This document shows positions 2 to 6,466 of a stretch of DNA of 64,000 nucleotides, one piece after another. The position numbers and the translations under genes are program-made. Source of the DNA: Lachnospiraceae bacterium (GTDB lineage: Bacteria > Bacillota > Clostridia > Lachnospirales > Lachnospiraceae); assembly GCA_022800815.1 (NCBI GenBank), contig JAAWRC010000015.1, positions 18,144 through 82,143 on the forward strand, in the 5' to 3' direction. Under the pieces are notes generated by a model, which saw only the letters and a program-made list of their open reading frames with translations, did not search any database and was not told where the DNA came from. Every line of letters begins with the position of its first letter. Within the stretch, counting starts at the first letter, position 1.

Positions 2-2917
2 CGGGAAAACGAACTTCTCATGGATCAAATGAATGTCAAAAAAGAGCAGCTCAACGACGACCCGTCTCGTTATACCTATGTAATTAGCGAGAGAACGATG
101 ATACAGGATCTACAGACGGAGGAGTCCTATCGGGCGTTTTTGGCACGGAGCGGAAAACGGGATGTTTCTGTACACCAGAATTGGAGCCTTTATATTGACG
201 TTAAGGTCAAAAAGATAAAGGGGAAGTATCTTATTTCCATTGCGCTTGTAAATGATTCCGCCGTCCAATCGAATGGCAGATCCCATCGATCGAATAAACA
301 TGATAAGGATAAAGTAACGATTGAGACATTGTTCAACTCGGGAATTGACATTTCGCTTCGAGGGGCAAGCTATTCACCTGTTGAATTGGACTACTTTTTG
401 GACGATTATAAATATGATAGGGAACAGCAGGCGATCGGCTTGAATTGTTCGATTGTGTTTGACCGTGAGAATAATACGATTTCCACGGACCATTTACCGA
501 CTTTTGCTCAGAAACGACTCATTACAAATGACAGTCTGGCTGTCAGGTTTCAAGAGTTGATTGATGTTCCGCTTGAGACGCTTAAGGGTATCCGGAAAAA
601 GATGGATATCGAGTTCAAGAAGTGGCAGGCGTATTACGGTCAGAAGAAGGCGACGCTCACAACTGCGGGGAAAGAGAAAATGAAAGCAGAAATCTCCGAG
701 TTCCGGCGCGAGATTGAGCGATTTCAAATGGGGGTCGATATACTTGAGGCGTATTCCATTGTTTTGAAAAGTTTCGTTCTCATGAATAAAGCCTTTTTAA
801 AAACATCGAAGAAGTACGACACCTGGAGGTTGTTCCAAATTGTTTTTATTGTTTCCCTTGTTCCGGATATTGTAGCCTGCGATGAAAACATCATGCCGCC
901 GGAGGAGAAACAGAAAACAACATTGAGCGAAGTGTCCCTTCTGTACTTTCCTACGGGAGGCGGCAAAACCGAGGCATTCCTGGGCGTTTTGGTATTCAAT
1001 TTGTTTTTTGACAGGTTCCGAGGTAAAGATTGTGGAGTCACGTCGATTCTCAGATACCCTTTAAGACTGCTTTCGGTGCAGCAGGTTCAGCGCCTTGCAA
1101 ATACGCTCGCCCAGGCAGAGCTCCTTCGAAGGGCTGATCCGCTGATCTGCAGCACGGAGGAGTTCTCGCTCGGATATTTTGTGGGTGATGCGAACACTCC
1201 GAACAACATAGGGCGCAAGAGGGCAATTCGATATCGAGGGATGACTCAGGAGGAAATGGACGAAGAGCGCATTATCGACATATGTCCGTTCTGCGGGCAA
1301 CCGACTGTGCATCTTAAGTTCAATGAAGAGAAATATCGCCTGATGCATTTCTGCACGAATTCCGGCTGTCCTTCCGGAGAGGCATTGCCGGTGTACATGG
1401 TTGACTATGAGGTTTACCGATACCTGCCTTCTGCAATTATCAGCACGGTTGACAAACTGGCGATTGTCGGAAATAATCCAAGCTTCCGAAATATCCTGTC
1501 TGGTGCGCCGCTTCGCTGCCCCAGACACGGTTTCACTTCGACAAGGCGCTGTCTTGTCAGTCAGGCGGGGATGGAGTTTTGCAACGAGGAAATACAGAAC
1601 TTTGAAAAAGTACAAATGTATGATCCGGCTCCCACTCTCTTCATTCAGGATGAGCTGCATCTTATCCGAGAGTCACTGGGTACATATGCTTCGCATTATG
1701 AATCGTTTATCGACTATTTTGTTCAGAATGGTTCCCCGTCTAAGCGAAGGATAAAGATCATTGGTGCGACGGCTACGATTTCCGCCTATGAGGAGCAGGT
1801 TGTGCACCTATATGGTGGACGTACACCAATTCGCTTTCCATGTGCTTCTCCGTATTTAAATAAGAATTTCTATTCTTTTATTGACGAAACGGACACACAA
1901 CGACTGATTATGGGATATGCGCCTTATGGGAAGGCGATTATCAATTCGGTGGTGTACTCGCTCAAATACATGCGTGAGGTAGTGTATCGATATCTTGCGG
2001 AACCGGAAAGGGTGTTGTCGATTCCCGGCATGACAATTACGACGAAGGAGGATGCCCTTAAGATCCTGGAAGATTACTGGATTTTTCTTGAGTATAACAA
2101 TGTGAAACGCGACGGTAACAATGTCGAGGGGGCGCTTGAGACTCCGATTAACGTAGAACTTCGGAAAGAAAACATTCCGGAGTTTCAAACCAGAAAAATG
2201 ACGGGTGACGAATCGTTCCAGGGCGTGCGGGAGGTGCTCGCTCAAGTTGAAAATACAGACAATGTATTTGCAGGAGTTAATCTGATTGCGGCAACATCCA
2301 TGATTTCACATGGTGTTGACGCAGACCGGTTTAACGTAATGTTTTTTTATGGAATCCCTGGAAACACTGCAGAGTATATCCAGGCCTATTCTCGAACGGG
2401 CAGAAGGCACTCAAGTATTGTCGTCGACATTATCAGGCCATCGAGAGAAACGGACCGAAGTTACCTGAATAATTTTGTGAATTTCCACAGGTTTAAAGAT
2501 ATTCTGGTGGAACCGGTTCCGATTAACCGGTGGGCGACAAAAGCCATTGGCGGGACGCTTCCGGGTATTTTTACCGGGCTTTTATTTACACAATACGACC
2601 CGTCCATTCAGTATAGCGTGGGACCGCTGTTTAAGATGAGAAATATTAAACAGGCAATTCAGCGGGAGCTCATACAGAAAGATACCGTGCTCAGCCAGCT
2701 GCTTCAGGCGTATGGTTGTGAAATGAATGGTGATGCCATCGATCTCGGCAATCAATACAGGGAGAGCATCAAAGCATTCACAGATCGCATCTTTACGGAA
2801 ATCGTGGATCGAAACTGGGCAGACGAAGGGATTTTCGATGGCTTTACTCTCATGGGTTACCATATTATGAACAGCCTGAGAGATACTGACGCTCAGATCA
2901 TTATAGAACTTGAGTAA
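2..2917 (+). CDS. DrmA-like (DISARM-type) superfamily 2 helicase, 5' end truncated by window edge
   Basis: Walker A YFPTGGGKTEAF, DELH box, GATAT, C-terminal MISHGVDADRFNVMFFYGIPGNTAEYIQAYSRTGRRH, internal Cys-rich insert CPFCGQ...CTNSGC. Frame stays open upstream of the ATG at 20 (R-E-N-E-L-L-M). Confidence 0.75.
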   Translation, partial: RENELLMDQMNVKKEQLNDDPSRYTYVISERTMIQDLQTEESYRAFLARSGKRDVSVHQNWSLYIDVKVKKIKGKYLISIALVNDSAVQSNGRSHRSNKHDKDKVTIETLFNSGIDISLRGASYSPVELDYFLDDYKYDREQQAIGLNCSIVFDRENNTISTDHLPTFAQKRLITNDSLAVRFQELIDVPLETLKGIRKKMDIEFKKWQAYYGQKKATLTTAGKEKMKAEISEFRREIERFQMGVDILEAYSIVLKSFVLMNKAFLKTSKKYDTWRLFQIVFIVSLVPDIVACDENIMPPEEKQKTTLSEVSLLYFPTGGGKTEAFLGVLVFNLFFDRFRGKDCGVTSILRYPLRLLSVQQVQRLANTLAQAELLRRADPLICSTEEFSLGYFVGDANTPNNIGRKRAIRYRGMTQEEMDEERIIDICPFCGQPTVHLKFNEEKYRLMHFCTNSGCPSGEALPVYMVDYEVYRYLPSAIISTVDKLAIVGNNPSFRNILSGAPLRCPRHGFTSTRRCLVSQAGMEFCNEEIQNFEKVQMYDPAPTLFIQDELHLIRESLGTYASHYESFIDYFVQNGSPSKRRIKIIGATATISAYEEQVVHLYGGRTPIRFPCASPYLNKNFYSFIDETDTQRLIMGYAPYGKAIINSVVYSLKYMREVVYRYLAEPERVLSIPGMTITTKEDALKILEDYWIFLEYNNVKRDGNNVEGALETPINVELRKENIPEFQTRKMTGDESFQGVREVLAQVENTDNVFAGVNLIAATSMISHGVDADRFNVMFFYGIPGNTAEYIQAYSRTGRRHSSIVVDIIRPSRETDRSYLNNFVNFHRFKDILVEPVPINRWATKAIGGTLPGIFTGLLFTQYDPSIQYSVGPLFKMRNIKQAIQRELIQKDTVLSQLLQAYGCEMNGDAIDLGNQYRESIKAFTDRIFTEIVDRNWADEGIFDGFTLMGYHIMNSLRDTDAQIIIELE

Positions 2918-2928
2918 GGGGGAGAACG

Positions 2929-4800
2929 ATGAGTTCTGACAGAAAGATGAAGCGCGGAAAAGTACAATCGCTTTATAAATATTTACCGGACTCCTGGATC
3001 GACTTTTCTGTACGGGGAAAAGACCGAAAGCAGTATATTGCGAAAGTGGATCACTGGAACAGTAAAAAGCTGGACGGGATCAACTCCAAACGATTGATTC
3101 GAACGGTCAATCATGCCGTTCAATCCTTTGCCGCTCAGGGAAGGGGCGGTAGCTCTGTGAACCCAATTTCAGGATTTGGTGCGGGACTCACACAAGAAAA
3201 CTGCGATATTCTCACTCCTAAAGTCTCTGATGTTGAGCGTGGAATCATTGCGAAAATCAGCCCTCTTACCTTTTACTGTAAGAAGTGCAAGAAGGTTTAT
3301 CAATTCAACAGTGAGGAGGCCTATAATCGAAATCATCGTTGCAAGAACTGTCAGATTGAACTTACGCAGTTTCGTCAGATCTATTTTTGCAAGTGTGGAT
3401 ACGCCACGGACAGGCATCCGGGATGCCCGGCGCATAACTTTAAGGATGTATATTGGGATGGTAAATATGATTTTACCTGTCGGGCTTGCAAAAGGAAGAT
3501 ATCAATGCGGGCTAAATGCCCGGAATGTGATGCAACGCTCGGCGCAAAAGTTGCGCTTGACCCTTCGCAGTATTTTACCTGCAGTCTGAGTCTTGTCGAT
3601 TTGATCGATGAAAAACTGGAGCGCTTTATCTCGGAAACAGATTATGGAAAATACATCGCCATCGCCTATTTCATTGGGAAAATATCCAGCGATCAGTTAG
3701 GGGAAGTGATTGATAAAGGGATTACCACTGATCCGGAGAAGTACAACAGAGAGTACGACAAGAATTTCCAGATGTTTAAGGTTGTGTTCGGTGACGAGAA
3801 CACTGCGGCGAATGCGGCAAAAGCGGCGACTGACAAAGAATGCGGAAAGGCCTATGCCCCCATAATAGAGGCTGTTATAGGAAAGCTTTGTGCAAAATCG
3901 GAAAACATTGCTCTGCTGGCGGAAATGATCTTAGAACATGGCATGGTAAAGGAGCTTAAAGACCACGCAACACTTGAAACGGCCATCAAGGTTGCCCGCT
4001 CGCTTAATACGAATGCTGACCCTGAATCATTTCGGAGCATTGCGGAACGGTTTGGGATTAAACATGTGAGGGCGTGTGATAAAGTGCCGTTTATTTTTTG
4101 TTCATACGGATATACCAGAGTCAAAAGTGGATATGAAGACGGAGTTCAGCTTCATGCGTTTAAGGAAGAGCAAAACGGCAGAAAGAATATATATGCTATT
4201 CACATGAACACGGAAGGCGTGCTGTTCGAGTTTGACCGGGTAGCGATTCTTGAATGGCTTGTTAAAAATGAGTTTATAGATTCTGATGATGTACCCGATC
4301 TTAACTCAGAGGAAGATGTAAAGCTCTGGTTCATAAACAACATAAAGCCGGAGGAGATCCATCCGTTTACTACGATTCATGAGGAGACATCCCCTGCGAC
4401 CTATTATGTTTATCGCCTGGTTCATTCCATTTCGCACCTGTTAATTCGAGCCGCCGCCGATATCGGAGGACTTGGCAGGGATTCCTTGTCGGAATACATC
4501 TTTCCCGGAATTCCGGCGGTACTCATTTATGTTCAGAATTCCCAAGGATTCAACCTCGGGTCATTGTTTCATACATTCGAGGCTTACTTTGACAAATGGC
4601 TGCTCCGGGCTAATGGCCTTGCACAGAAATGCGTGTTTGATCCAATCTGCATCGAACGCCACAAGGCATGTACGGGATGTTTGTTTTTGAACGAAGTGTC
4701 TTGCCAGCATTTTAATAAAGATCTTGATCGATCACTTATTATTGGACATGTGGATAAACGGGCCAAAAAGCGGGTGGTTGGATTCTGGGAGGAAAAATAA
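2929..4800 (+). CDS. DrmB-like protein: N-terminal zinc ribbons plus DUF1998-like C-terminus
   Basis: Multiple CxxC pairs (CKKC, CKNC, CRAC, CPEC); C-terminal HSISHLLIRAAADIGGLGRDSLSEYIFP...CVFDPIC...ACTGCLFLNEVSCQHFN typical of DUF1998; starts 11 nt after the upstream stop. Confidence 0.75.
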   Translation: MSSDRKMKRGKVQSLYKYLPDSWIDFSVRGKDRKQYIAKVDHWNSKKLDGINSKRLIRTVNHAVQSFAAQGRGGSSVNPISGFGAGLTQENCDILTPKVSDVERGIIAKISPLTFYCKKCKKVYQFNSEEAYNRNHRCKNCQIELTQFRQIYFCKCGYATDRHPGCPAHNFKDVYWDGKYDFTCRACKRKISMRAKCPECDATLGAKVALDPSQYFTCSLSLVDLIDEKLERFISETDYGKYIAIAYFIGKISSDQLGEVIDKGITTDPEKYNREYDKNFQMFKVVFGDENTAANAAKAATDKECGKAYAPIIEAVIGKLCAKSENIALLAEMILEHGMVKELKDHATLETAIKVARSLNTNADPESFRSIAERFGIKHVRACDKVPFIFCSYGYTRVKSGYEDGVQLHAFKEEQNGRKNIYAIHMNTEGVLFEFDRVAILEWLVKNEFIDSDDVPDLNSEEDVKLWFINNIKPEEIHPFTTIHEETSPATYYVYRLVHSISHLLIRAAADIGGLGRDSLSEYIFPGIPAVLIYVQNSQGFNLGSLFHTFEAYFDKWLLRANGLAQKCVFDPICIERHKACTGCLFLNEVSCQHFNKDLDRSLIIGHVDKRAKKRVVGFWEEK

Positions 4801-4801
4801 T

Positions 4802-6466
4802 ATGGCAGTCATGCATCCGGAGGATTTAGAGAATTACGAGTGTACTGCGACGGAGCGGGAAATGTATGAGGCGTTCCGCGACCAACTCCCGCAGAAATAT
4901 CAGGTGTTCTATTCGATTCGGTGGTTTGAAACGAATCATGAAAACAAACGAGTAGACAGTGAGTGTGATTTTCTTGTTTTTGATCCGTCTTTTGGCTTTC
5001 TCACCATCGAGGTGAAAGGTGGTATCGGGATTGACATTGAAAATGGAAGGTGGTTTCTGAACGAGTATTCGGACAGATATACTCGGTCCCGAAGAGAACT
5101 TAAATGCAACCCCTATGAGCAGGCCGAGAAGAGCATGCGTCATTTTTGCAATTACTTTGAGGAGGAGTTCCACCAAAGATTTAACGGCGTATATGGATTT
5201 GCAGTTGCATTTCCGAGATATGCGATTGATTCGGCCCTTGCCGCAGATGCTCCCATGGAGCTGACAATTGATGTCGGGGATATGAAAAACCTCGGAAAAC
5301 GAATCAACGAGATTTTTCATTATTGGCGTAATCGGAGAAATATCAATATTCCATTTTCGCCTGACCACAAAAAGAGATTCATCAGCGCTATTAATAAGCG
5401 CATCGCTCTGTCTGCCGCAGCCGGGGCTTTGATTCGGATAAAAGAAAAAGAGTTTTCAAAGATCGATTTTATGCAGGAAGCAATTCTTGACGTGCTTTAT
5501 CATTATCATCAGGTGAGAGTTCTCGGTGGGGCCGGGACCGGTAAGACATTCATAGCAATAAAAAAGGCTATGAGAGATATAAAAACCGGGAAGAGTGTTC
5601 TGTTTCTATGTTGTAATAAGGAACTCTCCCTATTCGTAAAGGATAGACTGGGCAGTGAAACTTTAATTGATTTTCGAACATATGAAGAATTGATGAGAGA
5701 AATCATCGGAGAGAAATACGACTCGGCAGGAATCAACGAAAACGGGAACCGAAGCTGTTTTGACCTCGTGTCGGAAGCGCATCCAAAGCTCTATGACTCG
5801 ATCATTGTCGATGAGGGACAGGACTTCGATGCCGACATGGGTCTGACGGTGCGTCTGCTGCTTAGGGATGAGAAGGATTCAAGCCTTTATGTGTTTTACG
5901 ATATCAATCAGAATGTGTTTGAACATAAAGCTGACAACGCCTTTGCAATAGACTGTCCGCCTTTTGTACTTCGCTATAATATCCGCAATACAGGATGTAT
6001 CTATAAATGTGCGGTTGATTCGACAGGGCTTGGGGCAGACACGATTGCCAATCAGCTTCTCGGAGTTGAGCCGGATATACGGCAGTACAATAGTGAATTG
6101 CAGGGAATAAAAGAACTTAGCAATATCGTGACGAGGCTGACCCAAAAGGAATTCGTCAGCACGAAGTCGATCGTCATTCTTTCAGATGAACCGTTTGAAA
6201 AGTCGATCCTTGCCACGGAAGAGCGAGTGGGAGCATATGACATTTCTTTTGATGAGCTGAGAGAAATCAAGGACACAGAAATCTGCTTTAGGACGACGGA
6301 AGAATTCAAAGGATTAGAGGCCGATGTGGTAATCTACCTTAAAAACGAATATCCGGGAACAGTCAGGGAGGAAATAGAGAAACGCAAAGAATATGTTGCG
6401 CTCACCAGGGCGAGATATTATCTATATGTACTTCGGACGAAGAGAAAAGTAGAGGAAACTTACTAA
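4802..6466 (+). CDS. NERD-domain nuclease fused to UvrD/SF1-type helicase
   Basis: N-terminal ECDFLVFDPSFGFLTIEVKGG (NERD), Walker A VLGGAGTGKTFIA, Walker B IIVDEGQDFD, C-terminal EFKGLEADVVIYL and YVALTRARYYLYVL. ATG at 4802, 1 nt after the drmB-like stop; the ORF-track start at 4724 is upstream read-through. Confidence 0.8.
   Translation: MAVMHPEDLENYECTATEREMYEAFRDQLPQKYQVFYSIRWFETNHENKRVDSECDFLVFDPSFGFLTIEVKGGIGIDIENGRWFLNEYSDRYTRSRRELKCNPYEQAEKSMRHFCNYFEEEFHQRFNGVYGFAVAFPRYAIDSALAADAPMELTIDVGDMKNLGKRINEIFHYWRNRRNINIPFSPDHKKRFISAINKRIALSAAAGALIRIKEKEFSKIDFMQEAILDVLYHYHQVRVLGGAGTGKTFIAIKKAMRDIKTGKSVLFLCCNKELSLFVKDRLGSETLIDFRTYEELMREIIGEKYDSAGINENGNRSCFDLVSEAHPKLYDSIIVDEGQDFDADMGLTVRLLLRDEKDSSLYVFYDINQNVFEHKADNAFAIDCPPFVLRYNIRNTGCIYKCAVDSTGLGADTIANQLLGVEPDIRQYNSELQGIKELSNIVTRLTQKEFVSTKSIVILSDEPFEKSILATEERVGAYDISFDELREIKDTEICFRTTEEFKGLEADVVIYLKNEYPGTVREEIEKRKEYVALTRARYYLYVLRTKRKVEETY

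What the first reader, a model, noticed from the sequence alone, without database searches (positions are those of the whole stretch)
2..6466. Non-canonical DISARM-related cluster: DrmA-like helicase, DrmB-like DUF1998 protein and a NERD/UvrD helicase-nuclease
Sequence shows three tightly packed co-directional genes (gaps of 11 nt and 1 nt). Established: drmA helicase plus drmB DUF1998 are the shared core of DISARM, normally with drmC (PLD nuclease), drmD or drmE and a DNA methyltransferase. Here the next gene is instead a NERD-nuclease/SF1 helicase fusion, and no methyltransferase or PLD gene follows. Inference: a variant or minimal DISARM-like anti-phage system in which the NERD-UvrD protein supplies the nuclease.
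Basis: partly seen in the sequence, partly recalled or inferred. Interest (0 to 1): 0.78.

Follow-up and report, generated by a model that had tools for sequence, protein, structure and literature searches.

The report
DISARM variant with paired UvrD helicase-nucleases
This is a conserved four-gene relative of the DISARM antiphage system in which the usual nuclease and an accessory protein are replaced by two related UvrD-type helicases, one with an intact NERD nuclease site, which suggests a built-in nuclease for a defence family whose cutting step is unresolved.

Summary
DrmA (cut by the window edge; complete on the contig), DrmB and a NERD-nuclease/UvrD-helicase protein ("NU") lie 11 nt and 1 nt apart. 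The window hides the fourth member: a UvrD-like helicase gene (UvrD1) lies just upstream of drmA. Upstream of that is a complete type 4 BREX operon, not DISARM.

The quartet UvrD1-DrmA-DrmB-NU forms one DrmA clade of 16 loci nested among class 2 DISARM DrmAs. UvrD1 is present in 16/16 and NU in 15/15 loci that can be judged; DrmE and the PLD nuclease DrmC are absent from all. The four proteins diverge together (r 0.96-0.99). NU keeps every NERD and helicase catalytic residue. UvrD1 looks like a NERD-UvrD protein with a dead nuclease, so the pair may work as a two-motor helicase-nuclease.

The modification partner varies. One half of the clade mostly carries adenine methyltransferases; the window's half carries a radical-SAM/GHKL-ATPase pair, which this genome encodes on another contig. 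No other quartet examined adjoins BREX.

Verdict: a new DISARM variant. It is not minimal DISARM, and it is not shown to be part of BREX. Antiphage function is inferred.

The parts
2..2917 (+). drmA-like SF2 (YprA-family) helicase gene, 3' 971 codons; the full gene is C65:17602-21060 (1152 aa)
   Evidence: PADLOC DrmA 2e-162 on the full protein; PDB 7s9v_A DrmA 6.7e-181 with profile A1; clade
950..970 (+). Walker A (PTGGGKT, residues 498-504 of full DrmA)
   Evidence: invariant in the five-sequence alignment A1
2929..4800 (+). drmB-like gene, 623 aa
   Evidence: PADLOC DrmB 4.6e-52; PDB 7s9v_B DrmB 7.9e-19 over the C-terminal part
4630..4704 (+). C-terminal Cys cluster of DrmB (C568, C574, C581, C584, C592), DUF1998-type
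   Evidence: invariant in 14 homologues
4802..6466 (+). NU: NERD nuclease fused to UvrD-like SF1 helicase, 554 aa
   Evidence: Pfam NERD PF08378 1.2e-8 and UvrD_C PF13361 8.5e-6, both above cut-off; model pLDDT 85
4850..5170 (+). NERD nuclease domain (residues 17-123) with E18, D56, E70, K72 all invariant
5525..5548 (+). Walker A of the NU helicase (GGAGTGKT, residues 242-249)
   Evidence: GxGKT residues invariant in 15 homologues

Best explanation
A DISARM-derived antiphage module of four genes, UvrD1-DrmA-DrmB-NU. Inferred mechanism: DrmAB, autoinhibited as in characterised DISARM, loads on single-stranded or 5'-overhang phage DNA and translocates. UvrD1 (helicase with an apparently dead NERD domain) and NU (helicase with a live NERD domain) act as a paralogous two-motor helicase-nuclease, analogous in layout to AddAB/AdnAB, and degrade the DNA that DrmAB has engaged. 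They take the places of DrmE and the PLD nuclease DrmC. Self-protection comes from an exchangeable modification cassette: adenine methylation in some relatives, and in the window's subclade possibly the radical-SAM/GHKL pair, here encoded in trans. Shown by computation: gene identity, clade, replacement of DrmE/DrmC, co-divergence, catalytic residues, the split location of the rSAM-GHKL pair. Inferred: antiphage activity, DNA loading rule, complex of UvrD1 with NU, role of the modification cassette.
For: Profiles and PDB matches. Tree of 82 DrmA: 16-row clade, SH-aLRT 100, UvrD1 16/16, NU 15/15 assessable, DrmC 0, DrmE 0, nested among DrmE/DrmC-bearing class 2 DISARM. Loci were fetched by DrmA similarity, not by NU or UvrD1. 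DrmA-DrmB and DrmB-NU spacings are short or overlapping in all; UvrD1-DrmA is short except where one gene is inserted. Pairwise distances of the four proteins correlate 0.956-0.992, Mantel p=2e-4. NERD E18/D56/E70/K72 and the helicase motifs are invariant. UvrD1 N-terminal part shares strand-helix order and the spaced P, E and G with NU but lacks D and ExK. UvrD1 is unrelated to DrmE, and NU to DrmC. DrmAB biochemistry of Serratia DISARM: PMC9142583.
Against: No phage assay exists for this clade. DrmA and DrmB score below NCBIfam's DISARM equivalog cut-offs (359 of 950, 80 of 240). The trigger loop and the methylation-sensing valine of Serratia DrmA were not located: the pairwise alignment stops at DrmA residue 1190 of 7s9v_A. 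The homology of the UvrD1 N-terminal domain to NERD is not significant in local profile comparison; it rests on register and secondary structure.
Confidence: 0.6

Rival explanations
1. The four genes are the restriction arm of the adjacent type 4 BREX: BREX provides phosphorothioate marking and the quartet destroys unmarked DNA.
For: A complete BREX-4 set with DndA-like cysteine desulfurase lies 2-15 kb upstream on the same strand; no other DNA-modification gene was found on that contig stretch.
Against: None of the other fetched quartet loci has a BREX gene within the fetched flank, though several flanks are cut by contig ends. BREX-4 is a complete system itself (PMC12839542). An Rpn-like gene and about 700 bp of non-coding sequence separate them.
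Confidence: 0.1
2. Canonical DISARM logic with NU simply taking over the job of DrmC; UvrD1 and the rSAM-GHKL pair are incidental.
For: NU sits exactly where DrmC sits in class 2 DISARM.
Against: UvrD1 is present in 16/16 and diverges with the others at r>0.95. DrmC is reported to be dispensable in DISARM (PMC9142583), so a one-for-one swap explains little.
Confidence: 0.14
3. A DNA-repair or end-processing complex (MrfAB- or AddAB-like), not defence.
For: DrmA is of the YprA/MrfA family and NU/UvrD1 are RecBCD-superfamily-like helicases.
Against: Rare and patchy (2 of 391 genomes of the class), found across phyla, repeatedly next to restriction-modification genes, and closest to DISARM DrmA, not MrfA.
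Confidence: 0.06
4. A decaying remnant in this genome: the ancestral operon lost one GHKL and the beta-solenoid gene, and the rSAM-GHKL pair was separated.
For: Nearest relative L015 has eight contiguous genes; the window genome has four plus two elsewhere.
Against: All six proteins are full length without stops, with conserved catalytic residues. Subclade 2 does without rSAM-GHKL beside the quartet.
Confidence: 0.1

Closest known systems
DISARM class 2 (DrmE-DrmA-DrmB-DrmC-DrmMII)
   Same: DrmA and DrmB families, their order, split helicase/DUF1998 genes; window DrmA clade is nested among these
   Different: DrmE and the PLD nuclease DrmC are absent from all 16; UvrD1 and NERD-UvrD stand in their positions; no fixed cytosine methyltransferase
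DISARM-like loci of the other large DrmA branch (Rhizobium and Azospirillum plasmids, Actinobacteria)
   Same: UvrD-DrmA-DrmB-NERD/UvrD in L008 and L009; DrmA-DrmB-NERD/UvrD in L124 and L126
   Different: DrmA is only 24-25% identical and lies in a distant clade; NU is in another branch, so probably a separate assembly
TALON and ARMADA (Bell et al., PMC12458937)
   Same: YprA-family helicase; TALON has a NERD nuclease
   [quoted passage not shown] none are here
BREX type 4
   Same: Adjacent upstream on the same strand
   Different: None of the quartet genes is described as BREX type 4 core in PMC12839542
AddAB, AdnAB, RecBCD
   Same: Two UvrD-type motors, one with a live and one with a dead nuclease domain (inference)
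   Different: Here the nuclease is an N-terminal NERD domain, not a C-terminal one, and the pair is tied to DrmAB
PADLOC RTasNERD-Hel (DRT-associated)
   Same: NU matches over its full length, 243 bits
   Different: No reverse transcriptase recognised among the upstream genes

Membership tests
DISARM | DrmA helicase | tested here: met
   PADLOC 2e-162; PDB 7s9v_A 6.7e-181; below the NCBIfam equivalog cut-off, 359 of 950 bits
DISARM | Separate DrmB with DUF1998-type Cys cluster | tested here: met
   PADLOC 4.6e-52; 7s9v_B 7.9e-19; five invariant Cys; below the NCBIfam cut-off, 80 of 240 bits
DISARM | DrmC PLD nuclease | tested here: not met
   No hit of a DrmC profile in 16 clade loci. DrmC is reported as often missing from DISARM, so this alone does not exclude membership
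DISARM | DrmE (class 2) or DrmD (class 1) | tested here: not met
   No DrmE profile hit in 16 loci; UvrD1 unrelated to DrmE. DrmD was not profiled; no PADLOC DrmD match among the upstream genes
DISARM | Operonic DNA methyltransferase (DrmMI or DrmMII) | tested here: not met
   None from the contig start to about 5 kb past NU. D12 methyltransferases lie next to relatives L023, L024, L027, L055, G313
DISARM | Protection against phage | not testable with these tools
   needs a phage assay
BREX type 4 (upstream neighbour) | BrxP, BrxC, PglZ type 4, BrxL | tested here: met
   BREX_PglZ_4 388 bits, cut-off 140; BrxP 1.1e-240; BrxC 1.6e-256; BrxL 4.6e-225
BREX type 4 including the quartet | Recurrent linkage of quartet and BREX | tested here: not met
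   No BREX query hit beside any other quartet locus within up to 10 kb
TALON | TPR-CSD and TATA-binding protein genes | tested here: not met
   Not among the profile-searched upstream genes; downstream not searched
PbeABCD | HKD-SF2 helicase, CxC ABC-ATPase, DndE-like protein | tested here: not met
   Defined in PMC10853773; none of these in the locus
Gabija | GajA OLD-TOPRIM next to GajB | tested here: not met
   Only weak GajB helicase matches; no GajA found upstream

The most novel reading that the evidence does not exclude
The radical-SAM/GHKL-ATPase pair that follows NU in the window's subclade, and is held in trans in this genome, is a new self-marking or invader-sensing module that replaces the DNA methyltransferase of DISARM, possibly through an unusual DNA modification.
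Probability: 0.2. Interest if true: 0.85.

Novelty: new variant of a known kind. Interest (0 to 1): 0.6.

Why it matters
In DISARM the nuclease step is unresolved: DrmC is dispensable and often absent, and how DNA is degraded 'has remained a mystery' (PMC9142583). A lineage in which a live NERD nuclease-helicase and its dead-nuclease paralogue are fixed parts makes that step directly testable by point mutation. The exchange of methyltransferase for radical-SAM/GHKL between two halves of one clade gives a route to find what the latter does.

Tried and rejected
PbeABCD: my first idea, because BREX-4 makes phosphorothioate and four genes follow; rejected after reading its domain content. UvrD1 as a diverged DrmE: rejected, hhalign probability 0.9%. 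NU as a diverged DrmC: rejected. BREX-4 linkage as a general rule: rejected. One origin of all DrmAB-linked NUs: the AU test rejected it, but L124 was mislabelled as lacking DrmB in that test, so it is not relied on; only the monophyly of the clade's 15 NUs is used. First N-terminal profile comparison was void because of a wrong motif pattern and was redone, where the NERD match was not significant. Promoter scan upstream of UvrD1: 17 sites against 10.2 expected in shuffles, no clear site assigned. DrmA in phages: no match. Literature searches for class 3 DISARM or DISARM with NERD and UvrD found no description of this quartet in open-access papers. The main paper on BREX-4 phosphorothioation was not held.
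Full report
OBSERVATION. The three ORFs are present at 2-2917, 2929-4800 and 4802-6466 on +, 11 nt and 1 nt apart. The window is C65:18144-82143 of a 3.4 Mb, 75-contig genome, so the 18 kb upstream could be read. drmA is complete there (C65:17602-21060). PADLOC, Pfam and PDB comparisons give DrmA, DrmB and NERD+UvrD. The matches to DISARM equivalog models fall well below NCBI's cut-offs, so these are divergent members.

SURROUNDINGS. Going upstream from drmA: a 653-aa UvrD-like helicase (UvrD1, C65:15545-17506), an Rpn-like gene (named by eye; no Pfam hit), a DndA-like cysteine desulfurase, a 66-aa protein, BrxL, PglZ of type 4, BrxC, BrxP, and an unassigned 722-aa protein. This is a type 4 BREX system with the cysteine desulfurase that a 2026 survey proposes as its sixth core part (PMC12839542). 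Downstream of NU there is no methyltransferase or PLD gene that I could recognise in about 5 kb.

RECURRENCE. DrmB of this kind is rare: 2 of 391 genomes of the class. The second, G313, has the same four genes in the same order, without BREX and next to a D12 methyltransferase, a restriction enzyme and an AIPR/AbiU-like protein. A scan of 85,462 species genomes by DrmA alone gave 80 loci. The nearest DrmAs, in Clostridia, Erysipelotrichaceae, Desulfovibrio, Bacteroidetes and Spirochaetaceae, carry UvrD1 before and NU after DrmAB. On a tree of 82 DrmAs the window's clade has 16 rows (SH-aLRT 100). UvrD1 is present in 16; NU in 15, the sixteenth being cut by its contig end; DrmC and DrmE in none. 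The clade is nested among class 2 DISARM loci; among the 66 rows outside it DrmE is near DrmA in 23, DrmC in 24 and NU in 6. The tree is a quick one with a warning about a deep long-branch join, which does not touch this clade. Pairwise distances of the four proteins over 15 loci correlate at 0.956-0.992 (Mantel p 2e-4). NU of the clade is monophyletic.

SECOND ASSEMBLY. Rhizobium plasmids carry UvrD-DrmA-DrmB-NERD/UvrD, and Azospirillum and Shinella plasmids DrmA-DrmB-NERD/UvrD, with DrmA of a distant branch (24-25% identity for the Rhizobium ones). DrmAB has therefore probably joined NERD-UvrD proteins more than once.

ACTIVE SITES. In 15 NUs the NERD residues E18, D56, E70, K72 and the helicase Walker A, Walker B and motif VI arginine are invariant. 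In UvrD1 the helicase motifs are invariant. Its first 120 residues are predicted as strand-helix-three strands-helix-strand, the order seen in the NERD part of NU. Merged profiles place P, E and G of the two in register while the catalytic D and ExK are missing in UvrD1. The local profile score is not significant, so 'dead NERD' is a well-grounded inference, not a demonstrated homology. The two helicase parts are clearly homologous (99.8%).

MODIFICATION CASSETTES. In the half of the clade without the window, L023, L024, L027 and L055 carry a D12 adenine methyltransferase and, next to it, a gene of the size and type shown for L023 to be a DGQHR (DndB/DpdB-family) protein; L026 has DpnII-type restriction-modification genes; G313 has a D12 methyltransferase and a restriction enzyme. 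In the window's half, L015, L017, L018, L020 and L040 have a radical-SAM gene right after NU, L019 a shorter one. L015, L017 and L040 also have a second GHKL ATPase after it, and L015, L017, L018, L020 and L040 a GHKL ATPase before UvrD1; a 350-550-aa gene, with a weak FapA beta-solenoid match in L017, lies between UvrD1 and DrmA. The window genome has none of these in place, but a radical-SAM gene and a GHKL gene, nearly touching, lie on contig C47:32186-35768. That radical-SAM protein is sister to the one in L015 (bootstrap/SH-aLRT 100/99) inside the quartet-linked group, as the quartet proteins themselves are. The CxxxCxxC motif is invariant. I read this as one operon that was split. Radical-SAM/GHKL genes also occur without DrmB in ten other genomes of the class sample, so the pair is a module of its own.

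MECHANISM. From published work, Serratia DrmAB is autoinhibited, is activated by 5'-overhang DNA, is damped by methylation, and its nuclease partner is unknown (PMC9142583). I infer that this lineage supplies the missing step with UvrD1 and NU as a two-motor helicase-nuclease, and that self-protection is delegated to exchangeable cassettes. The BREX-4 neighbour could supply such a mark, but no other quartet locus adjoins BREX, so I treat it as a separate defence system in the same island.

MEMBERSHIP AND NOVELTY. The locus meets the DISARM core (DrmA, DrmB) and fails the tests for DrmC, DrmE and an operonic methyltransferase. I therefore call it a DISARM-derived variant, not a member of class 1 or class 2. 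I found no description of this quartet in the open-access papers searched, which is not proof that none exists.

Noticed in passing
L002:218-13864 (C65, just upstream of the window): Complete type 4 BREX operon with cysteine desulfurase and 66-aa protein, plus an unassigned 722-aa gene overlapping brxP with no Pfam, PADLOC or NCBIfam match.
   Followed up: partly
L095:14187-17769 (G000 C47:32186-35768): Radical-SAM and GHKL ATPase pair, orthologous to the genes that follow NU in L015.
   Followed up: yes
L118, L119, L121, L122, L123: Recurring operon of two unassigned genes (about 380 and 555 aa, the second HerA-like by eye), a GHKL ATPase and a radical-SAM protein, without DrmB; a candidate unnamed defence system.
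   Followed up: partly
L023:16910-20034, also L024, L027, L055: Quartet followed by a D12 adenine methyltransferase and a large gene; in L023 that gene encodes a DGQHR (DndB/DpdB-family) protein.
   Followed up: partly
L008:960-15075: Rhizobium plasmid with cytosine methyltransferase, DUF2357 (McrC-type) protein and Vsr directly before UvrD-DrmA-DrmB-NERD/UvrD.
   Followed up: partly
L030:1138-10246 and L063: Genes resembling a type III restriction-modification pair (Mod confirmed by profile in L030) directly before UvrD1-DrmA.
   Followed up: partly
L011:5142-11704 and L125: NERD-UvrD directly after a very large protein (sacsin/NOV_C in L011; annotated as DEAD/DEAH helicase in L125): another partnership of this family.
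   Followed up: no
L096:1783-4936 (G000 C47:38782-41935): Type IIG restriction-methyltransferase and specificity gene about 3 kb from the radical-SAM/GHKL pair.
   Followed up: no
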